Of a stretch of DNA of 64,000 nucleotides, positions 47,911 to 58,862 are shown piece by piece. The position numbers and the translations under genes are program-made. The stretch is taken from NCBI RefSeq assembly GCF_018143015.1, contig NC_054748.1, positions 14,994,967-15,058,966 on the forward strand. Reading direction: 5' to 3'. The notes beneath the pieces were generated by a model. That model did no database searches. It was not told the origin of the DNA and saw only the letters and a program-made list of their open reading frames with translations. The stretch comes from Lytechinus variegatus. Its lineage: Eukaryota; Echinodermata; Echinoidea; Temnopleuroida; Toxopneustidae. The first letter of the stretch is position 1. Each line of letters begins with the position of its first letter.

Positions 47911-47922
47911 GGCGGAGTGGTT

Positions 47923-49285
47923 CCGGGACAGCCCGACCACCGGACAGCCCGACCCTGGACAGCCCGACCCGCTGCCCTGGACAACTCGTCCCGGTCGAGT
48001 TGTCCAGGGTTGGCTCTGAATCGGACAACTCGACCACTTGAATTCTTCTTCAAAATTTCATGAAATAAGATTTCAAACTTTACTTCAAAAGTATTTTCCC
48101 GCATAATCCATGTTTCTACAATATATTCTCGACAGAAAAATTGACATTTTAGTTCATTTTGAACTATTTTGAAAGAAAATAGAGCGAGTTCCCTTGCAAC
48201 GAGAATAATCCGATACCGCCGGCGAGCTGTGTTCTGCAACTTGCAAGGTCTTCAAAATTGAGTTGATTTTTCCGTCACTTGACATATTTTAATGGTGAGT
48301 GTGTGCTATTTTGTATTTTCATATTCCATTTTCACATTTCCTGTACTTATTTAAAGTTATTGCATTGCACAAAACTGATACTTAATGCAAACTTTTTAGA
48401 TAGTTCACCTGGAAAGGACACCGATGCGGTGCTTCGCCTCGCCGGCCAGCTGGGCGACCGGCTGTGCTGTGATTGTGACTGAGTGAGGCAGTCAGCTCAA
48501 CTAGCTATGCGAGGTCGAACTTACTTATTTTAGTTAATTTGTCCGTCTCTTGACATATTGCCCATATTCCATTGGCGAGAGTGTGCTACTTTTGTATTTT
48601 CACGCTTCTTTCACTTATTAAAAAGCTTTTTTTTTCATGTCACTAACAAAAGGAAATAAAATGGATTTGAAAATGTCTCAGTAGCCGGCCTCTGTAATTA
48701 GTTATGAAGTTTACATTTTTTGTAGGAAATTCATTGTCTTTATTTTTGTTCTTAAATAACTATTACAATTTGTTTTATTGTTTTCTAAGTTTAGAAGAGC
48801 AGGGTGGGGTGCACAACTGACAATAGATTGGGTAATTATAATTATCAAAATTGAATAAGTCCTAGTTTATTGAAAAATGAAATGTATTCTGCCGAAATTG
48901 AAAAACTTACCTTTTTTATCAAAATCTAAAAACTTGCTTTTCGTTAGCGAAAAACATGTCTCTCATGTTTTACCTGTTGGTTACTGTCGCAGCTTTTTTT
49001 AATGCAACTTCCATTGGTAACAAGTAACAACGGGTCTTCTGGAGGATACAAGCACTTGGGCTGGTACCTAAGTGTACCAACCTACACCAGGGATGAGGAG
49101 AAGAGGTTTCAGACTCAACAAGCGATGGCCTTTCCATTTCCTTCACGAGCAGAAATAATACCGAGTTCCAATGACTTAGGCATCAGAGCGGCAGTCCCTT
49201 GATGGATGAGGTAAATACAGCTTCTTAGTTCCAAAAAATCAATTTTTGTGCAGGCATGTCAAAGTTAAATTTCTGGGTTTTTTTT
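47923..49285 (+). repeat. Left outer arm of the giant palindrome
   Basis: It starts with three tandem GGACAGCCCGACC units, then a hairpin (CCCTGGACAACTCG, loop TCCCGGT, complement). At 48269 and 48540 a ~60-bp unit (cttgacatatt..gagtgtgctattttgtatt) is duplicated. Small frames at 48279-48482 and 49002-49202 recur in the right arm but match no family I know. Confidence 0.85.
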
Positions 49286-49730
49286 GTATTTTCAAATTCT
49301 TTAAAAGAAAAAAAGGACAACTGAATTGTAAAAAATTTTACTTGTTTTACTTTGGTATAAGTTGGAACATTTCAAATTAATTTGTGGATATGGTAATGCG
49401 AAATTTATGTGGATCTTTTATGTTATGTAAATCTTCCAGAAGATACCAGATATGGTTCTACTTCTAGTGTGTTTAGCAAATTAACTTAACTTTTATATAT
49501 TCGAAAATGTATTGCTTCTAAATTGAAGACAAGATAAAGATTGAAAATGGTCGGATTTGTTTTAGTATCAAGAGGTGCAGACTGCAGATCTTCAAATATT
49601 TGAAAGTACAATAATTTTGTCAATAATTCATTTCATACTTCATTTCATCTTTCCAGCTGTTTGATTTAGTTGAGACAACATGGATTGCAAACTGTACTTA
49701 TTTATAAAACAAAACAAAAGGAAGTGCTGA

Positions 49731-49800
49731 AAGGACAAGTCCACTCCAACAAAAAGCTGATTTGAATAAAAAGAGAGAAATCCAACAAGCATAATAATTG
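49731..49800. repeat. Fragment of the CAAGTCCACCCC MITE family
   Basis: aaggacaagtccactccaac followed by agctgatttgaataaaaaga; one end only. Confidence 0.55.
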
Positions 49801-50344
49801 TAGCTTTAAGATTGTCCATATTGTTACATTGGCACCCAAAGCAGAGGATATTGTTCTCAATTGGAGTTACGAATCAACAAATGTAACTATGATAACTATG
49901 GGCACACATGAATTTGTGAATATGTACAAATAGTATACAAATATAACAGACTAAGGAAGTATAGCAGGAATTATTTGTCTGATGTTGGACTGGCAATTGC
50001 TCATTATACTAAGAGGCAAAGTATGACTGGGCACACATGACTTTGTGATAATATGTAAGTAGTAAACAAATATACCACGAATAGTGCACTTTGATTTTCT
50101 TTATGTTTTTTTTTCAACAGCATAACAAGGCAGTATTTTGTTATGTGATGCTATACTGTTTGTAAGATATAACAGAAAATTATGTGTTACTTGGTAATTT
50201 CAGTTGTGATTAAGTTTATCATATTGTTATATAGAAAATAAATACATGTAGTATACTAAAAAAGTATTGTGAATATTGGGTTCTATTACCCTCGTGTATT
50301 TTTTTTCTGCTGAACATTTTACCTTTAAGTGCTGTGGTGATCAG

Positions 50345-50740
50345 ATGGACATTTTGGGAGAGATGAAGTTGAAATTGGAGGGATGGAGACGATGATATGA
50401 AAAGGATGGTTATGAAAAGTGGGTTGGAGATGAGAGGAAGGGTGGAGATGATGAGAGGAGGGATGGAGATGAGAGGGATAGAGTTGATGAGATGAGGCAT
50501 GGAGATGAAAGGAAGGATGGAGATGAGAGGAATTATAGATGATGAGAGGAGGGATGGAAATGATGAGAGGAAGGATGAAGGGGATGAGGGGGATAGAGAT
50601 GAGAGGGATAGAGATGAGAGGATGCATGGAGATGAAAGGAAGGATGGAGATGAGAGGGATGGAAACTATGAGAGGAAGGATGAAGGGGATGAGGAGGCGA
50701 TGGAGATAAGACGGATTGAGATCAGGGGATGGAGAGGATG
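50345..50740 (+). repeat. GGATGGAGATGAGAGG minisatellite
   Basis: Irregular units built from ggatggagatgagagg and gatgag. The right arm carries the complement at 54780-55610. Confidence 0.85.
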
Positions 50741-50749
50741 AATGGCGCA

Positions 50750-51270
50750 TCATCAACATTATCATCACCAACATCATCTCTATCATCGCCAAATCATTGC
50801 CATCACCACCATCATCACCATCATCACCATAATCAATATCGCTATCATCATCGCCACCATTATGTTAATCACCATCATCGCATTACCATTCAACATCATC
50901 ACCAACATCATCGTGTTTATCATCGCCACCATCAATATCGCAATCATTGCCATCACCACCATCATCATCCATCATTATTGTCATCATTGCTATCACCACT
51001 ATATCATCACCACCAACATCATTCTCATCCATCATCGCCATCATTATTATCACCATTATCTTCATCATCACGTCACCATCATCGTCACCATCACAGTCAT
51101 CATTGCCATCACCACCATTATAACCTTATCCATCATTCTTGTCATCATCATCGTATCACCACTATAATCACCAACATCATCACCACCATCGTCACCGTCA
51201 TCCATCATCATCACAAACATCATCATCATGACCATCATCACCATTGCCACCAACATCCTTTTCATCATCT
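50750..51270. repeat. (CATCAC)n/(ATC)n microsatellite
   Basis: Trinucleotide-based repeat; His-rich or Ile/Thr-rich frames are artefacts. The right arm carries gatggt repeats at about 53700-53794 and 54280-54740. Confidence 0.9.
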
Positions 51271-51289
51271 CAGGAATATTGAGAACTTC

Positions 51290-52382
51290 GTGGAAATGAT
51301 ACAATCCCGAAGGTAATTGATTCGATCTCATCAGTGGCGTAGCTGCCTTGAACTTTTGTAGGGGGAACCGAGATTAATTATGGGGATAGTCCTGCAGACC
51401 AAAGTTTAAGAAAATCATAATTTTATTCTAAAAAACACGATTATCTCAAAAGGCCTAAATAAATGATGTAATTAGGACCCTCGCTCTCTTCTTTCTCTTG
51501 CTTTTTCTTTCTCTTTTCCTCTTTCCCCTTCTTTTTCCTTTCCTTTCTCCCCCTTTCCACTGTTTCATTTGCTCTGTCTTTCACTTTTCTCTTCTTCTTC
51601 CCTCATTTTTTCTATTCTTCAGGCGCGTTTTTTTTTTGGGGGGGGGGGTGGGGGATAAAGCTCCTCCCCCCAAAAAAAAAATCGCTCAAGCCCCATCAAA
51701 AATTTTAACCACAAAGAAAAATAATTTATGTGGGCCATATTATGTATTGAATAATGTACTATTCCATTCATGTCATCTAGTGCTCTTAGAATCAAAGTTT
51801 TTACTATTCAAATTCTTCAAAGATTTTCTCCCCGTTTACCACATTCCCTCATAATCCCCTGCCATGTTCTATCCATGTAGGAGTGCGAAATTGATGTTCG
51901 AACTTGGGAGTGCCAAATGATTACCAAGAGATTGACTGATTAGGCCTATGATGATTTATTAAATAATTTATTGAAAAAAATGAATATTTGAGCATATTTC
52001 ACATTAATTGAGTTGATTTATTGATAAATTTTTGACAAAATAATTGAAAGGTAAAAGGTGAAACCCCAATTTTCGGAACTTATCATTAAATTCCGAAAAT
52101 TCTGCTCTGGACTTCATACGTACATAACTCCCATGAACACATTGCTGAGATCCACAAAGTAAAGTATGATGCTGCCCCAAAAATTGCAATGTGTGTTGAA
52201 CTTCACTCATGTAATAAAGTTCAATATAATAATTTATGAAATTTGCTTTAACAACCAAAACTGGCCAGCACGATTGATCATCACAACACCCTTAACTCTG
52301 CAGGTTCTAACGGCTTTGCCTTTCAAAAACTGACAGAAATTGGAAGGCTAATTTCAGCCTAATTTTCATACCTTGTGTTTGA
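51290..52382. other. Central spacer of the palindrome, left part
   Basis: It contains an end-like cagtggcgtagctgcc at 51335, C/T-rich sequence at 51480-51620 and facing G and C runs near 51640-51680, suggesting a degraded hAT-like element. No gene. Confidence 0.4.
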
Positions 52383-52950
52383 AGGAGAATGAAACCATTG
52401 GAACAAGATAGCTTGTGTGAAAACAGAAAAAAATCAAAGAATCAGATCAACGAAAGTTTGAGAAAAATCGGACAAATAATGAGAAAATTATGAGCATCTG
52501 AATATTGCAATCACTAATGCTATGGAGATAGCAAATTGGCAATGCGACAAAGATGTGTGATGTCACTTGTGAACAACTCTCCCCATTACTTTAGTATACA
52601 TTTCACTTGAATTGCCTCTTTTATCACATCTATCCATAGATCATGTGTTATACATATTTTTTAAGAATACATCATGGATAAAGAGTTTGTATCATCATAA
52701 GAAAAAGCAAAAAGAGACATTTTGAGGGTATTTTATAGTCCACCAAAGGGAAAGTTGTTCATCAGTGACATCACACATCCTTGTCGCATTGCCAATAGGA
52801 GGATCTCAATAGCATTTATAGTGATTGCAATATTCAAATGATCATAACTTTCTCATTATTTGTTCGATTTTTCTCAAACTTTCTTTATTCTTATTCTTTG
52901 ATTTTTCTATTTCTACACAAGCCTATTTGTTCCAAAGGTTTCATTCCCCT
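52383..52950. mobile_element. TTAA MITE with GAATGAAACC ends
   Basis: TTGA precedes and TTAA (52951-52954) follows. Ends aggagaatgaaacc and ggtttcattcccct are inverted; inner arms share ttgagaaaaatcggacaaat and complement, and gtgatgtcact-like words. Confidence 0.7.
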
Positions 52951-52954
52951 TTAA

Positions 52955-53794
52955 GTGGGTAGTGTTTGCTCAACACCTTTTGGTGTCATTTGAAAGTTGA
53001 CTTTATTGGCTTCCATATATGTTGCCCCCCCCCCCTCCCCGTGATACATTTTTTATTTGGCAGCCATGTCAAAGGTTAATAGTTTTTTGGGAGCTAACTT
53101 CAAGTAGATAAAACTAGTATTGTACCCATGTGTCAGTCAGGGTTGTATCTAGGGGGCACATTCAGGGGGCGCAAAAAGAAAAGGGTCGCGAATAAAGATA
53201 TGGAAAAAAGGAAAGATAATGAAAATAAATAAAAGTGCAGAAAAGGGATACCACTGAAGGTGATTAATACCCCGTCTTTTGTTTTTTTCCATGGTAATGC
53301 CGTTTCCAACACATTTAAAAATGAATCTTGCATGTCTTTATCCAAGGATGAATATTCGTGCCACTTTTTGATTAATGATAATCATACCAATTCTCTACAA
53401 GAATTCCAACAAACAGCTTTAGCTTGAAATATTCCTTTTTTCAAACGCAAATATGACTTCTTTATAGCTGCGGGTTTGAATCTTGATATTTTACTTTTCA
53501 TTAATTCTCACAAATAGTTATGAAATACATTATTATCTGGTTCCATTTTCAAAGCTTTTCAACACGCGCTGATTTGATAAGGGAGATATAAATCCTCTTT
53601 ATTGATTAAAATATCCTTTTTGGGTGAGAATATATAAAGTCCATCTTAGGCATGGTAAGAGATGAATAATGTGACATTAGTACTAGTATCTGTGTATGAA
53701 ATTACAGATGAAATAATCATGAAGATGATGATCAAGATGTGATGAGATGGGAGGTGGTAATAGTGATGGTAATGATGTCGATGATAGTGGTGGT
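52955..53794. other. Central spacer of the palindrome, right part
   Basis: AT-rich with no supported gene; GATGAT repeats start about 53700. Confidence 0.4.
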
Positions 53795-54279
53795 CAGAGG
53801 CGTCGATCCTGGGGGGGGGGGGGGGGGCGATCGCCCCACCAATGAAAATATTTGGGGCAAACATATCGTTTTGCCCCCCCCCCCATAATTCCGCATGTGC
53901 AAAAGAAAATGAGATTGTATTAATGTTACATTAAAATGGTGCTTAAAATGTCCGCTTTTCATATTGCAATATAAAAATTTCCAGCTCGCATCATTTCTGT
54001 TATTATATGTGTAGTGAGATATGTATCCTCCTCATTAGTTACTACAAATAGTCCTGAACAGGCACCTTTTTCCTGTTTTCAGATCATTATACTAAACAAA
54101 TTCAGCTCGCACTTCGCGCTCGCATTAATAGGTTGGTGAGACGTGTCTCTTTTTCATGGGTCACATACATGTATATATATGCATATATATAGTGTGTGTG
54201 TTTGAGTTGATTGGAACGTTGATTCATGACTTTGCCCCCCCCAAAAAAAAAAAAACTGAAAAACGGACCGACGCCCCTG
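53795..54279. mobile_element. Short hAT-like element with GTGGTGGT target
   Basis: Ends CAGAGGCGTCGATCC and GGACCGACGCCCCTG with G and C runs inside. GTGGTGGT borders both sides (53787-53794, 54280-54287), though the surrounding repeat makes that weaker. It contains an agctcgcacttcgcgctcgc motif as in 9890-10370. Confidence 0.7.
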
Positions 54280-54779
54280 GTGGTGGTGATGACGATCGGA
54301 TGATGGTAATGAAGCTAATGGTGTTGATGATGATTATTATGACGATAGTAATGATTAAGTAGATGGTGGTGATAATGAACAGTGGAAAACAGGTGGTGGG
54401 GGATCAAGGTCTTGGGGGCAAGAGCACCCCCCCCCCCCCCCAAAAAAAGGAAGATAAAATACAAAGAAGAATAAAAAACATTAGAGATAAGAGTTTTAGT
54501 ATGATGTCATAATCTATCAAAAAATTGAATTTGCGTAATAAAATGTCAACATTTCTGCTCGTTCACAATTTTTAAAAGATAACTTTGGCATGATGGGCCA
54601 TATCTTACCCCTCAAAATCTTTCACTCATTACGCCAATGATATGATGAAGTTCGTGGTGATGATGATGTCATGATGACGGTAATGATATTGATGAAGTTG
54701 AAGTTGGAGGCAATAATGTTTGTGATGATCACCCCCCCCCCCTTTCATCTCTATTCCCGTCTTCTCCAACCATTTTCGC

Positions 54780-55610
54780 ATCTCCATCCCTATCTAATTT
54801 CAATCCCTCCCCCTACTCATGTCAGCCCTTCCACATCATCTCCATTCACCTCATCATCTCTACTCCTCTCATCATCACCACTCATCACCATCTCCATCCT
54901 CATCTCTAAACCTTATCATCTCCATCCCTCCCCGCATCATTTCCATCCATCCTTGCATCATCCCCATCCCTCCTCTCATCATCTCCATCCACTCATCCAC
55001 ACCCCTCCCATCAACTCCTTCACTCCTCATCATGGCCATTCCACCTTTCATCATCTCCATCCATCCTTGTATCATTCCTCCTCTCATCATCTCCATCCAC
55101 TCATCATCTCTACTCTCATCATCACCACTCCTCACCATCTCCATCCTCATCTCTAAACCTTATCATCTCCATCCCTCCCCGCATCATTTCCATCCATCCT
55201 TGCATCATCCCCATCCCTCCTCTCATCATCTCCATCCACTCATCCACACAACTCCCATCAACTCCTTCACTCATCATGGCCATTCCACCTTTCATCATCT
55301 CCATTCATCCTTGTATCATCCTCCTCTCATCATCTCCATCCACTCATCATCTCTACTCTCATCATCACCACTCCTCACCATCTCCATCCTCATCTCTAAA
55401 CCTTATCATCCCCATCCCTCCCCGCATCATCCCCCATCCCTCCCCCATCATTACCATCCATCCTTGCATCATCCCTCTCATCAACTCCATCCACACCCCT
55501 CCCATCAACTCCATCACTCCTAACATGACCATCCCACCTTTCATCATCTCCATCCTTCCCCCCCCCCTCCATCTTCATCTCTCCAATCATCTCCATCTGA
55601 TTACCATGTG
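54780..55610 (-). repeat. CATCATCTCCATCC minisatellite with a ~245-bp higher-order unit
   Basis: Three large units start at ctctaaaccttatcatc near 54904, 55151 and 55393 (spacing 242-248 bp), each built of catcatctccatcc sub-repeats. It is the complement of the left-arm minisatellite, expanded. Confidence 0.85.
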
Positions 55611-55658
55611 ACACAACATTTGCTCCTGCGACAATTGCCCCAGGCTTAATTTTTCTAA

Positions 55659-55777
55659 AGCCCCTTTCACAATTGGTGGTGCGACTGCTTACGACCCTTC
55701 ACCGTTGCAATTCTGTGCAACATAAAATTGTGACCAAGTGATAGCAAACGATCGCACAAGCAGATGTGAAAGTCCCT
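55659..55777. mobile_element. 119-bp PIF/Harbinger-like MITE with TAA target
   Basis: TAA at 55656-55658 and 55778-55780. Ends AGCCCCTTTCACA and TGTGAAAGTCCCT; inner gtgcgactgc and gcgatc-type words pair. Confidence 0.7.
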
Positions 55778-56608
55778 TAAGATAGAGGTTTAGGGTTGCA
55801 ATAGGGTTTTAAGTTAGGTTTAGACCTTACTGGTTAAAGCTGTTCATAAGATTATGGTGTAGAATTTACAGCGGAGCAATTGTTGCCAGAGCAAATGTCA
55901 TGGAACCCGTCACCACAGCTCTCATTAAAAGGTAAATATCCAGCGAGAAAAGGGATACACAATAGTGAGAGAACCGAATATTCAAAATACTTCTTTGGAG
56001 TTAAGTGGGTTTTATTAAGTAACATTAAGGTAAACTTGATCAGATCTAAAATGACATAGTAACACACATTGAACTTCATTGTATATAAGATATTATATCC
56101 CACTTAAAATAAATACTGGTTCAAAATTTCAAATAGCATTACATTAACAAATTATGATAATAAATATGACACAATTCCAGTTGGGAACAATATCCTCTGA
56201 CTTTGGTGTTTATGTAAAGCTAACAATAAGGACAATCTTAAAATTACATTAGTGCTAATATGAATTAACATTCATCCAACAATTGCAATTTCAGGAATAT
56301 ACAACCTGTTATACATTATTTGGTTTCCATGGCAATTACATGATCCCTAACTTAGCTGGAGGGATTTTCAACCCTCATCTTTTTTTTTGTCATACAAAAA
56401 CTGGCCATACAGAGCTTGCAATTCAGGTGGTCTCAAAGAGCTAGAAAGATAGAAATAAAATAGAGTAATTTCAACTATTTGAAGCTCTGCACCTATTTGC
56501 TACTGAAAAAAATCAAACTATTTCAACCTTCAATTTAGAAGCAAATACATTTTTTTAAATATATTTAAATTAAGTTAATTGCACCTAGCTGAGGCTAGCT
56601 CAATCTTG

Positions 56609-57097
56609 AAAAAAAGTTCACGCTGAAGAAAAGTTTGTTGTAAAAATAGCAGAAAAATAATAAAAAAAATATTGGTGAATGTATGAGGAAAAGATTAAAA
56701 ACGTTATTCGAATATTAAGTTTTGGATTTGTGGGGTCATAAACGAGCAGCTGCCCCATATGTTATGTAGAAATGTTATGTAATATAAAATGCATGAATTT
56801 AATTTTTTCAATGGTTCCTAATGACTTTTTTTCATGTTTGGGTGTGAAATGTTTTGTTTTTTTATATACAAAAGGTAGAGTAAAACCATTTTCAATTTTC
56901 TGAGAAAATGACAATTTCTTGATTTTTTTACCATTTATTTATATGTAGAAATGCTGCTCGCATATGACATCACAAATCAAATAATTGAAATTCTATTACT
57001 TTTCAATTCTTTGATGGATTTTCCTCAAACCTTTGGCAATATTTTTGATTTTTTCTGCTGTTTTTACAATAAACTTTTTGTCAGGGTGAATTTCCCT
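56609..57097. mobile_element. TTAA MITE, AAGTTCACCCTGA family, copy 3
   Basis: Homologous to 14034-14529 but more diverged; ends aagttcacgctgaagaaaag and ctttttgtcagggtgaattt. It interrupts the right arm of the palindrome and is absent from the left arm. Confidence 0.7.
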
Positions 57098-57424
57098 TTC
57101 AAGCTCACTTGAACGATACTTGGTATCATCTAGAAGATGTGTATGACATAAATGTTCCACATGAATTAAGCGCAACCTCTACATACCCAAAATTAATTTA
57201 GAATGTTACAACTTCTACTTAACCTAAAAATGTAGTGGTTAGTCACATTTTTAAGAAGTAATTTTGAATTTTTATGAATACAATAATGTAAGTAAGAAAA
57301 ATAAGTTAAATTTTTGTTCAATTCAAATAATGTATAAAAGAAAAAAAATTATTGTTCAATTCAATTGTACTTTCTTTCTTTTAAAGAATTTGAAAATACA
57401 AAAAAAAAACAGAAATTTAACTTC

Positions 57425-58754
57425 GACATGCCTGCATGAAGTGCACAAAAATTGATATTGTATCTAAGAAGCTGTATTTACCTCATCCATCAAGGGACTG
57501 CCGCTCTGATGCCTAAGTCATTGGAACTCGGTATTATTTCTGCTCGTGAAGGAAATGGAAAGGCCATCGCTTGTTGAGTCTGAAACCTCTTCTCCTCATC
57601 CCTGGTGTAGGTTGGTACACTTAGGTACCAGCCCAAGTGCTTGTATCCTCCAGAAGACCCGTTGTTACCAATGGAAGTTGCATTAAAAAAAGCTGCGACA
57701 GTAACCGATAGGTAAAACATGAGAGACATGTTTTTCGCTAACGAAAAGCAAGTTTTTAGATTTTGATAAAAAAGGTAAGTTTTTCAATTTTGGCAGAATA
57801 CATTTCATTTTTCAATAAACTAGGACCTATTCAATTTTGATAATTATAATTACCCAATCTATTGTCAGTTGTGCACCCCACCCTGCTCTTCTAAACTTAG
57901 AAAACAAAACAAATTGTAATAGTTATTTAAAAACAAAAATAAAGACAATTTCCTACAAAAAATGTAAACTTCATAACTATTTACAGAGGCCGGCTACTGA
58001 GACATTTTCAAATCCATTTTATTTCCTTTTGTTAGTGACATAAAAAAAAAACTTTTTAATAAGTGAAAGAAGCGTGAAAATACAAAAGTAGCACACTCTC
58101 GCCAATGGAATATGGGCAATATGTCAAGAGACGGACAAATTAACTAAAATAAGTAAGTTCGACCTCGCATAGCTAGTTGAGCTGACTGCCTCACTCAGTC
58201 ACAATCACAGCACAGCCGGTCGCCCAGCTGGCCGGCGAGGCGAAGCACCGCATCGGTGTCCTTTCCAGGTGAACTATCTAAAAAGTTTGCATTAAGTATC
58301 AGTTTTGTGCAATGCAATAACTTTAAATAAGTACAGGAAATGTGAAAATGGAATATGAAAATACAAAATAGCACACACTCACCATTAAAATATGTCAAGT
58401 GACGGAAAAATCAACTCAATTTTGAAGACCTTGCAAGTTGCATGAACACAGCTCGCCGGCGGTATCGGATTATTCTCGTTGCAAGGGAACTCGCTCTATT
58501 TTCTTTCAAAATAGTTCAAAATGAACTAAAATGTCAATTTTTCTGTCGAGAATATATTGTAGAAACATGGATTATGCGGGAAAATACTTTTGAAGTAAAG
58601 TTTGAAATCTTATTTCATGAAATTTTGAAGAAGAATTCAAGTGGTCGAGTTGTCCGATTCAGAGCCAACCCTGGACAACTCGACCGGGACGAGTTGTCCA
58701 GGGCAGCGGGTCGGGCTGTCCAGGGTCGGGCTGTCTGGTGGTCGGGCTGTCCGG
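57425..58754 (-). repeat. Right outer arm of the giant palindrome
   Basis: Reverse complement of 47923-49285 with few changes, including the GGACAGCCCGACC triplet, the hairpin and both small frames (58195-58398 and 57490-57729 on the minus strand). Confidence 0.85.
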
Positions 58755-58862
58755 ACCCCGGCGGAGTTGTTAAAAAAAACAAACATCCGCATCTTCTGTT
58801 GTCGTTGACCCTGTTTTAAGATGTAAGTAGACGTTTGTTCATTTCTTTAAGCTTCCTTTCAT

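What the first reader, a model, noticed from the sequence alone, without database searches (positions are those of the whole stretch)
47911..58771. A 10.8-kb palindromic unit with near-identical outer arms and 11/12-matching flanks
The outer 1.35 kb on each side are close to identical inverted copies, while the inner arms are clearly homologous but heavily diverged. Minisatellites and microsatellites are mirrored too. GGCGGAGTGGTT and GGCGGAGTTGTT at the two borders look like a target duplication. Together these suggest one large mobile unit with very long terminal repeats, whose ends are kept alike by conversion or selection. No protein family known to me is encoded, so it would be non-autonomous or of an unknown type.
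Basis: partly seen in the sequence, partly recalled or inferred. Interest (0 to 1): 0.85.

Follow-up and report, generated by a model that had tools for sequence, protein, structure and literature searches.

The report
Palindromic Mutator-type foldback transposon, sea urchin
This is one copy of a family of large, nearly mirror-image jumping-DNA elements in what is most likely a sea urchin genome, built from two inverted copies of part of an older Mutator-type transposon; it is real and mobile, but of a kind already known.

Summary
The unit spans 47919-58759 (10,841 bp), has inverted arms (99% identical in the outer 785 bp) and is flanked by an exact 8-bp target duplication, GGCGGAGT. The genome (bindin present, so most likely a sea urchin) holds 120 matching tips; 98 form 49 inward-facing pairs, each joining a left-type to a right-type tip. 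Of the 49, 26 have exact 8- or 9-bp duplications. "No protein family" was wrong: the arms carry mirrored relics of a Mutator-like (MULE) transposase exon, and one copy with the same tips holds longer exons. So it is a non-autonomous MULE foldback element, made by inverted duplication of part of a MULE. In 7 of 31 copies the interior is inverted relative to the tips, three of them with exact duplications, so arms recombine; outer arms look concerted within subfamilies while the tips stay distinct. Tm1 of nematodes has the same tip design, Muta1 of mosquitoes the same 8/9-bp duplications, TU elements of sea urchins (recalled) similar arms. New member of a known kind. Open: the active transposase, and whether the arms make silencing hairpin RNA.

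The parts
47911..47918 (+). left copy of the target-site duplication, GGCGGAGT
   Evidence: identical to 58760-58767
58760..58767 (+). right copy of the target-site duplication, GGCGGAGT
47919..58759 (+). whole element, left-type tip to right-type tip, 10,841 bp
47919..47930 (+). left-type tip GGTTCCGGGACA
   Evidence: pattern search with up to 2 mismatches, 57 sites in the genome, 0 for the reversed pattern
58748..58759 (-). right-type tip GGGGTCCGGACA (reads inward on the minus strand)
   Evidence: pattern search with up to 2 mismatches, 63 sites in the genome, 0 for the reversed pattern
47926..47970 (+). three 15-bp tandem units (GGACAGCCCGACCCC) next to the left tip
58708..58752 (-). the same three 15-bp units next to the right tip
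47975..48009 (+). small self-complementary stretch inside the left outer arm (mirrored at 58669-58703)
47926..49348 (+). left arm (long terminal inverted repeat)
57337..58752 (-). right arm (long terminal inverted repeat)
49003..49199 (+). relic of a MULE transposase exon, left arm (with a stop and frameshifts)
   Evidence: E 1.4e-4 here; 9e-15 (D), 5e-14 (C), 1e-13 (M), 2e-13 (J) in sister copies; 0 hits in 11 reversed copies
57491..57682 (-). mirrored relic of the same exon, right arm
   Evidence: E 5e-7
49621..49701 (+). relic of the start of the next MULE-like exon
   Evidence: E 0.003 here; 13 of 16 copies searched match at E 2e-4 to 0.05 (not G, L031, L037)
56375..56444 (-). expected place of the mirrored copy of that exon start, right half; not matched in this copy, only in sister copies
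   Evidence: 7 of 12 homologous stretches match at E up to 0.001 (B, C, D, H, J, K, M); the window copy did not; place inferred
49339..51267 (+). left inner half, blocks of which are homologous (65-78%) to the inverted right inner half; minisatellite 50425-50731, CAT-rich 50748-51244
53717..57234 (-). right inner half (mirrored blocks), with minisatellite 54834-55559
52379..52954 (+). younger nested palindromic insertion, about 575 bp
   Evidence: copies C, F, G, J, K, M and L037 run across its place; B keeps about 33 bp of its end

Best explanation
A non-autonomous cut-and-paste DNA transposon of the Mutator-like (MULE) superfamily, foldback type, most likely in a sea urchin. SHOWN: a paired-arm family with target duplications of 8 or 9 bp, two different tips found together in every pair, arms carrying mirrored relics of a MULE transposase exon, interiors that are flipped relative to the tips in some copies, outer arms that agree within a subfamily but differ between subfamilies. 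INFERRED: an autonomous MULE with 15-bp subterminal repeats gave rise to a palindrome when part of it, from the tip through at least two exons and an intron, was duplicated in inverted order, which ended its coding ability. A MULE transposase supplied in trans then binds the subterminal repeats, pairs one left with one right tip, cuts, and reinserts with a staggered 8-9 bp break. Between moves the arms recombine with each other: crossovers flip the interior, conversion keeps the outer 0.3-1.3 kb alike and fades inward. The last few bases stay different because the transposase needs one of each, or because conversion tracts rarely reach the end.
For: 120 tips, 98 of them in 49 inward pairs: 27 right-left, 22 left-right, 0 left-left, 0 right-right. 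Target duplications: 19 exact 8 bp and 7 exact 9 bp, 26 of 49, 5 more with one mismatch; 0 of 2,070 wrong pairings of 46 copies match exactly. MULE: exon relics in all 11 whole copies; the 122-aa exon of C11:12667460, a copy with the same tips and exact duplication CTGATTAT, matches 4 of 6 fetched loci that score for Pfam PF10551 (E 9e-8 L128, 1e-7 L129, 3e-6 L132, over 35 residues each, and 6e-5 L127). A profile of four MULE-type exons finds copies C and D (E 1.5e-4 to 5e-4), though not the other 9 whole copies. Flips: 7 of 31, 3 with exact duplications; at least two events on a tree of 15. Concerted arms: at 100-500 bp within-element difference 1.6-2.3% against 4.5-8.6% between subfamilies; 20 sites in the outer 500 bp fixed in both arms within each subfamily but differing between subfamilies, 0 such at 720-1300 bp.
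Against: No intact transposase with these tips was found: 31 PF10551 matches, none inside the 49 pairs, the nearest 211 kb from any tip, and a home-made three-sequence profile of the catalytic region found nothing in C11:12667460. Pfam gives no MULE hit for the exons. 18 of 49 pairs show no good duplication. Within a subfamily, an element's two arms are not closer to each other than to the sister copies' arms (1.55% against 1.39% at 100-300 bp), and 12 sites in the outer 500 bp keep a fixed left-right difference inside some subfamily; C and D differ by 6.5% between arms at 100-200 bp. So homogenisation is shown per subfamily, not per copy. Merlin, P and hAT transposases were not searched.
Confidence: 0.85

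Rival explanations
1. The element is moved by another superfamily with 8-bp duplications (P, hAT, Merlin, KDZ), and the MULE exon relics are captured sequence.
For: Most exact duplications are 8 bp (19 against 7 of 9 bp), and no catalytic MULE domain was found inside a pair.
Against: Mixed 8 and 9 bp is what the mosquito MULE Muta1 makes (PMC5225508). The relics lie in all 11 whole copies, and a copy with the same tips carries longer exons of a MULE-like gene. KDZ: 2 matches over the cut-off, both on C15 and more than 5 Mb from any tip.
Confidence: 0.09
2. A segmental inversion, local duplication or assembly join, not a mobile unit.
For: 18 of 49 pairs lack a good duplication; C6:636272 and C6:1564313 share the 14 bp shown on each side, so that pair looks like a host-DNA duplication.
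Against: 49 pairs on many chromosomes, each left with right tip, 26 exact duplications, 0 in 2,070 wrong pairings.
Confidence: 0.01
3. Two separate shorter elements inserted by chance in inverted order.
For: 22 of 120 tips are unpaired.
Against: Copies share collinear or flipped interiors of many kb, and the duplications lie outside the outer tips.
Confidence: 0.01
4. The outer arms are alike by selection on binding sites alone, not by exchange between arms.
For: The stretch 20-100 bp differs by about 0.3% even between subfamilies, as constraint predicts, and 12 sites in the outer 500 bp keep a left-right difference inside some subfamily.
Against: At 100-500 bp subfamilies differ by 4.5-8.6%, yet both arms carry the same subfamily state at 20 sites; crossovers between arms are shown independently by the flips.
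Confidence: 0.15

Closest known systems
Tm1, Mutator/Foldback family of root-knot nematodes (PMC3169594, passages read)
   Same: Composite inverted termini with 13-15 bp tandem repeats, different 7-bp motifs at the two outer ends (A1 CGGTTAA, A2 CCTACCC) followed inward by GGA, 8-10 bp duplications, a transposase-bearing class. Here: GGTTCC... at one end, ...GGACCCC at the other, 15-bp repeats, 8-9 bp.
   Different: Tm1 is 0.17-2.5 kb; here 35 of 49 pairs are 9-13 kb, with a palindromic body, transposase relics in the arms and flipped interiors. One Tm1 copy has A2 at both ends; here 0 of 49.
TU elements of Strongylocentrotus purpuratus (recalled; only a citation seen, in PMC4079207)
   Same: As recalled: very long inverted repeats with an outer domain of 15-bp repeats and an inner domain, 8-bp duplications, exchangeable middle segments, sea urchin host.
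   Different: No TU sequence was at hand, so kinship by sequence is untested; the transposase class of TU is not known to me.
Muta1, active MULE of Aedes aegypti (PMC5225508, passages and section 7 read)
   Same: 8 or 9 bp duplications with no apparent preference, subterminal 12-bp tandem repeats, classed there as a foldback type, many non-autonomous derivatives.
   Different: 3.2 kb, 145-bp inverted repeats, intact transposase.
Galileo, Foldback-like P element of Drosophila (PMC4168063, passages read)
   Same: Very long inverted repeats that can grow by recruiting internal sequence.
   Different: P superfamily; its duplication length differs (recalled).
Mu killer of maize (PMC3440606, start of abstract seen in the search listing)
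   Same: A partial inverted duplication of a MULE transposase gene with two copies of a terminal repeat region.
   Different: Proposed to silence MuDR through a hairpin RNA; here a dispersed mobile family with no expression data.

Membership tests
Mutator-like (MULE) superfamily | MULE transposase encoded by autonomous kin with the same tips | tested here: inconclusive
   Partial MULE-like exons in C11:12667460 and relics in the arms; no catalytic domain inside any pair
Mutator-like (MULE) superfamily | 8-10 bp target duplications without fixed sequence | tested here: met
   19 exact 8 bp and 7 exact 9 bp of 49
Mutator-like (MULE) superfamily | long terminal inverted repeats | tested here: met
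Foldback type (Tm1-like) | composite inverted repeats with short tandem repeats near the tips | tested here: met
   for the window copy; the same units seen by eye at both ends of the 11 whole copies
Foldback type (Tm1-like) | two different terminal motifs, one per end | tested here: met
   49 of 49 pairs
TU elements | sequence homology to TU1 | not testable with these tools
   no TU sequence at hand; two searches found no paper giving it
TU elements | host is a sea urchin | tested here: inconclusive
   bindin PF02084, E 4e-66, absent from 14 controls; bindin is also reported from sea stars (recalled)
KDZ superfamily | KDZ transposase near the tips | tested here: not met
   2 matches in the genome, both on C15 and more than 5 Mb from any tip
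Merlin, P and hAT superfamilies | their transposase near the tips | not tested
   Merlin search twice unanswered; P and hAT not run

The most novel reading that the evidence does not exclude
The family is a mobile, dispersed counterpart of maize Mu killer: a transposon turned into an inverted duplication of its own termini and transposase exons, whose read-through transcripts fold into long hairpins, feed small RNAs and silence the autonomous MULE, while still riding on its transposase. This would fit the failure to find an intact autonomous copy, and arm-to-arm conversion would keep the hairpin near perfect.
Probability: 0.07. Interest if true: 0.75.

Novelty: new member of a known kind. Interest (0 to 1): 0.45.

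Why it matters
It ties a giant palindromic foldback family to the Mutator superfamily by relic exons, and gives a natural series (49 paired copies, several subfamilies, flipped isomers, unlike tips in every pair) for asking how foldback elements arise, how far conversion runs along inverted arms, and whether a transposase needs one tip of each kind. If the hairpin reading held, it would be an animal case of a transposon making its own silencer.

Tried and rejected
KDZ/Zisupton element: the KDZ search gave 2 matches, both on C15 and over 5 Mb from any tip. Working exon in the arm (97-aa frame at 57490-57783): rejected, since the alignment of 22 arms shows frame-breaking indels and Pfam finds nothing; it later proved to be a decayed MULE exon. 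Young autonomous copy among four pairs of 12.23-12.25 kb: the one read whole (C2:75290218) is the same non-coding family. Pairs of odd length as autonomous copies (read): of seven read whole, L031, L032 and L037 are the same family, L034 and L035 are little more than the two ends, L036 has the two ends around about 870 bp that match nothing fetched, and L033 (C13:24482312) differs and resembles C11:12667460. Part of the 28-kb pair (L038) holds a frame that looks like a LINE reverse transcriptase (by eye). Interiors of 11 further pairs sampled: 10 match the family in at least one sample, C11:12667460 does not. The 9 kb upstream of the related exon at C3:53911658 showed no MULE domain. The cluster at C1:17.219-17.227 Mb repeats a unit of about 2.5 kb with an exon relic and tip-like repeats, and is no source.

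Choices before counts: one search scored 40 of 158 first-look candidates, one search scored 40 of 2,398; of those 40, 9 lay outside the 49 pairs and were left out of the flip count. Pairs were limited to adjacent inward tips under 40 kb with at most 2 mismatches, so copies with worn tips are missed. One search parsed 46 of 49 pairs; the other 3 were added. Arm statistics use 11 of 49 copies, those fetched whole first. The tree uses 15 copies. E-values are for very small databases. One sub-threshold Pfam match in an arm frame (PF22149, E 0.028, below its cut-off) and two in the C11:12667460 exons (PF21629 E 0.11, PF01661 E 0.035) were taken as chance.
Full report
WHAT IS THERE. The window is C9:14994967-15058966 of an 869.6-Mb genome in 33 contigs. 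The unit runs from 47919 to 58759. Its arms (47926-49348 and 57337-58752) are 96.5% identical over 1,435 aligned columns and 99.4% over the outer 785. Further in, mirrored blocks are only 65-78% alike, including minisatellite and CAT/GAT-rich stretches. So the element looks like an old palindrome whose outer part has been kept fresh. An extra palindrome of about 575 bp near the middle (52379-52954) is a younger nested insertion: copies C, F, G, J, K, M and L037 run across its place, and B keeps about 33 bp of its end beside a deletion.

BORDERS. Exact 8-bp repeats GGCGGAGT lie at 47911-47918 and 58760-58767. The left tip reads GGTTCCGGGACAGCCC, the right tip, read inward, GGGGTCCGGACAGCCC.

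THE FAMILY. Searching the genome for the two tips with up to 2 mismatches gave 63 right-type and 57 left-type sites, and none for the reversed patterns. Of these 120, 98 form 49 adjacent inward-facing pairs under 40 kb: 27 right-left, 22 left-right, none of like with like; 22 tips are unpaired. Sizes run from 310 bp to 28 kb, median 10.6 kb, 35 of 49 between 9 and 13 kb. Target duplications: 19 exact of 8 bp and 7 exact of 9 bp, together 26 of 49; 5 more with one mismatch; 18 with neither. When left and right flanks of 46 copies are paired wrongly, 0 of 2,070 pairings match exactly over 8 or 9 bp. This settles that the family moves as whole units.

WHAT IT COMES FROM. The window copy has no usable gene; its long frames are repeat-derived or lie in the arms, and the five frames given to Pfam had no match over a cut-off. 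But copy C11:12667460-12677456, with the same two tips and the exact duplication CTGATTAT, has another interior with open exons of 122 and 90 aa. The 122-aa exon has few relatives in the genome (13 matches from 18 candidates). It matches 4 of 6 fetched loci that score for the MULE domain PF10551, just downstream of that domain (E 9e-8 at L128, 1e-7 at L129, 3e-6 at L132, each over 35 residues, and 6e-5 at L127 over about 100; not L130 or L131). A related gene at C12:8.03 Mb supplied the preceding exon, with the MULE-like stretch around CNFHWKQ...LMALPFLP (the likeness of this stretch to MULE proteins was first recognised from memory). That exon matches the arms of the foldback family: E 9e-15 in copy D and 5e-14 in copy C, 49-52% identity over about 60 residues; E 5e-7 and 1.4e-4 in the right and left arm of the window copy; some match in all 11 whole copies; no hit in 11 reversed copies. 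A profile of four such exons found copies C and D (E 1.5e-4 to 5e-4) and no other whole copy. The start of the following exon also lies in the left half (49621-49701; E 0.003 here; 13 of 16 copies searched). Its mirrored copy in the right half is found in 7 of 12 homologous stretches, but not in the window copy. Thus both halves most likely descend from one stretch of a MULE that included exon, intron and exon: the arms are an inverted duplication of the transposon's own gene region.

FLIPPED INTERIORS. Relative to the tips, the interior has one orientation in most copies and the reverse in others: 24 against 7 of the 31 paired copies among the 40 scored matches. Three flipped copies (C11:25708554, C18:9357619, C12:12342427) keep exact 8- or 9-bp duplications, so the flip lies inside the element. 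On a tree of 15 interiors the flipped copies C and D form one clade and J falls in another well-supported group, so at least two events are needed. Recombination between inverted arms is the plain explanation. It also makes exchange of sequence between arms likely.

CONCERTED ARMS. In the 11 whole copies, differences between the two arms of one element are 1.6-2.3% at 100-500 bp from the tip, against 4.5-8.6% between subfamilies; at 720-1300 bp the two become similar (7-12% against 8-14%). In the outer 500 bp, 20 sites are fixed in both arms within each subfamily and differ between subfamilies, against 12 sites with a fixed left-right difference inside some subfamily; at 720-1300 bp the numbers are 0 and 31. 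Against simple per-copy conversion: within a subfamily, an element's two arms are no closer to each other than to the arms of sister copies (1.55% against 1.39% at 100-300 bp), so the exchange may have happened mostly in the subfamily founders; and C and D still differ by 6.5% between arms at 100-200 bp. Constraint explains the outermost 100 bp equally well, since it hardly varies at all. The tips stay unlike in every pair.

MECHANISM. Most likely a MULE transposase in trans pairs a left with a right tip, cuts, and inserts with an 8-9 bp stagger; Muta1 of mosquitoes makes 8 or 9 bp (PMC5225508, passages and section 7). No intact source was found: 31 PF10551 matches, none inside a pair, the nearest 211 kb from any tip, and no catalytic domain in C11:12667460 by a home-made profile. 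Copies with worn tips are missed, so absence is not shown. Merlin, P and hAT were not searched.

KNOWN RELATIVES. Tm1 of nematodes (PMC3169594, passages) has the same tip plan: unlike 7-bp motifs at the two ends, then GGA, then 13-15 bp tandem repeats, with 8-10 bp duplications. TU elements of sea urchins, as I recall them, have long inverted repeats with an outer domain of 15-bp repeats and 8-bp duplications; [quoted passage not shown] Recruitment of internal sequence into long inverted repeats is described for Galileo (PMC4168063, passages). Searches for sea urchin foldback or MULE papers and for internal inversion in foldback elements listed no paper on this family, judged from titles and starts of abstracts; many journals are not held, so that is weak evidence.

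VERDICT.

Noticed in passing
window 52379-52954: Nested palindromic insertion of about 575 bp; seven other copies lack it, B retains about 33 bp of its end, so it may be older than the A-B split.
   Followed up: partly
L122 and L123 (C1:17218047-17223917): A tandem cluster with units of about 2.5 kb that mixes a MULE exon relic, tip-like 15-bp repeats, and frames that look to me like Harbinger and Penelope pieces (by eye; Pfam gave nothing).
   Followed up: partly
L030, right flank of C2:75290218-75302460: Just outside the right tip stands GGTTCCGGGACCCC, which looks like a left tip fused to a right tip with everything between them lost.
   Followed up: no
L011/L012, flanks of copy C (C2:30665374): The host DNA on both sides is itself an inverted repeat of about 26 bp, as if the element sat at the centre of another palindrome.
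   Followed up: no
C6:636272 and C6:1564313: Two copies with the same 14 bp on each side on one chromosome, so a host-DNA duplication seems to have carried the element along; several more tips crowd the first 1.7 Mb of C6.
   Followed up: no
L033 (C13:24482312-24489120): A copy whose outer part is about 97% like the coding copy C11:12667460 but whose middle carries GATGGA and ATCATC repeats like those of the non-coding family, possibly a link between the two.
   Followed up: partly
L036 (C6:31056104-31057514): A 1.4-kb copy with both ends and an exact 9-bp duplication around about 870 bp that match nothing fetched here, perhaps captured sequence.
   Followed up: no
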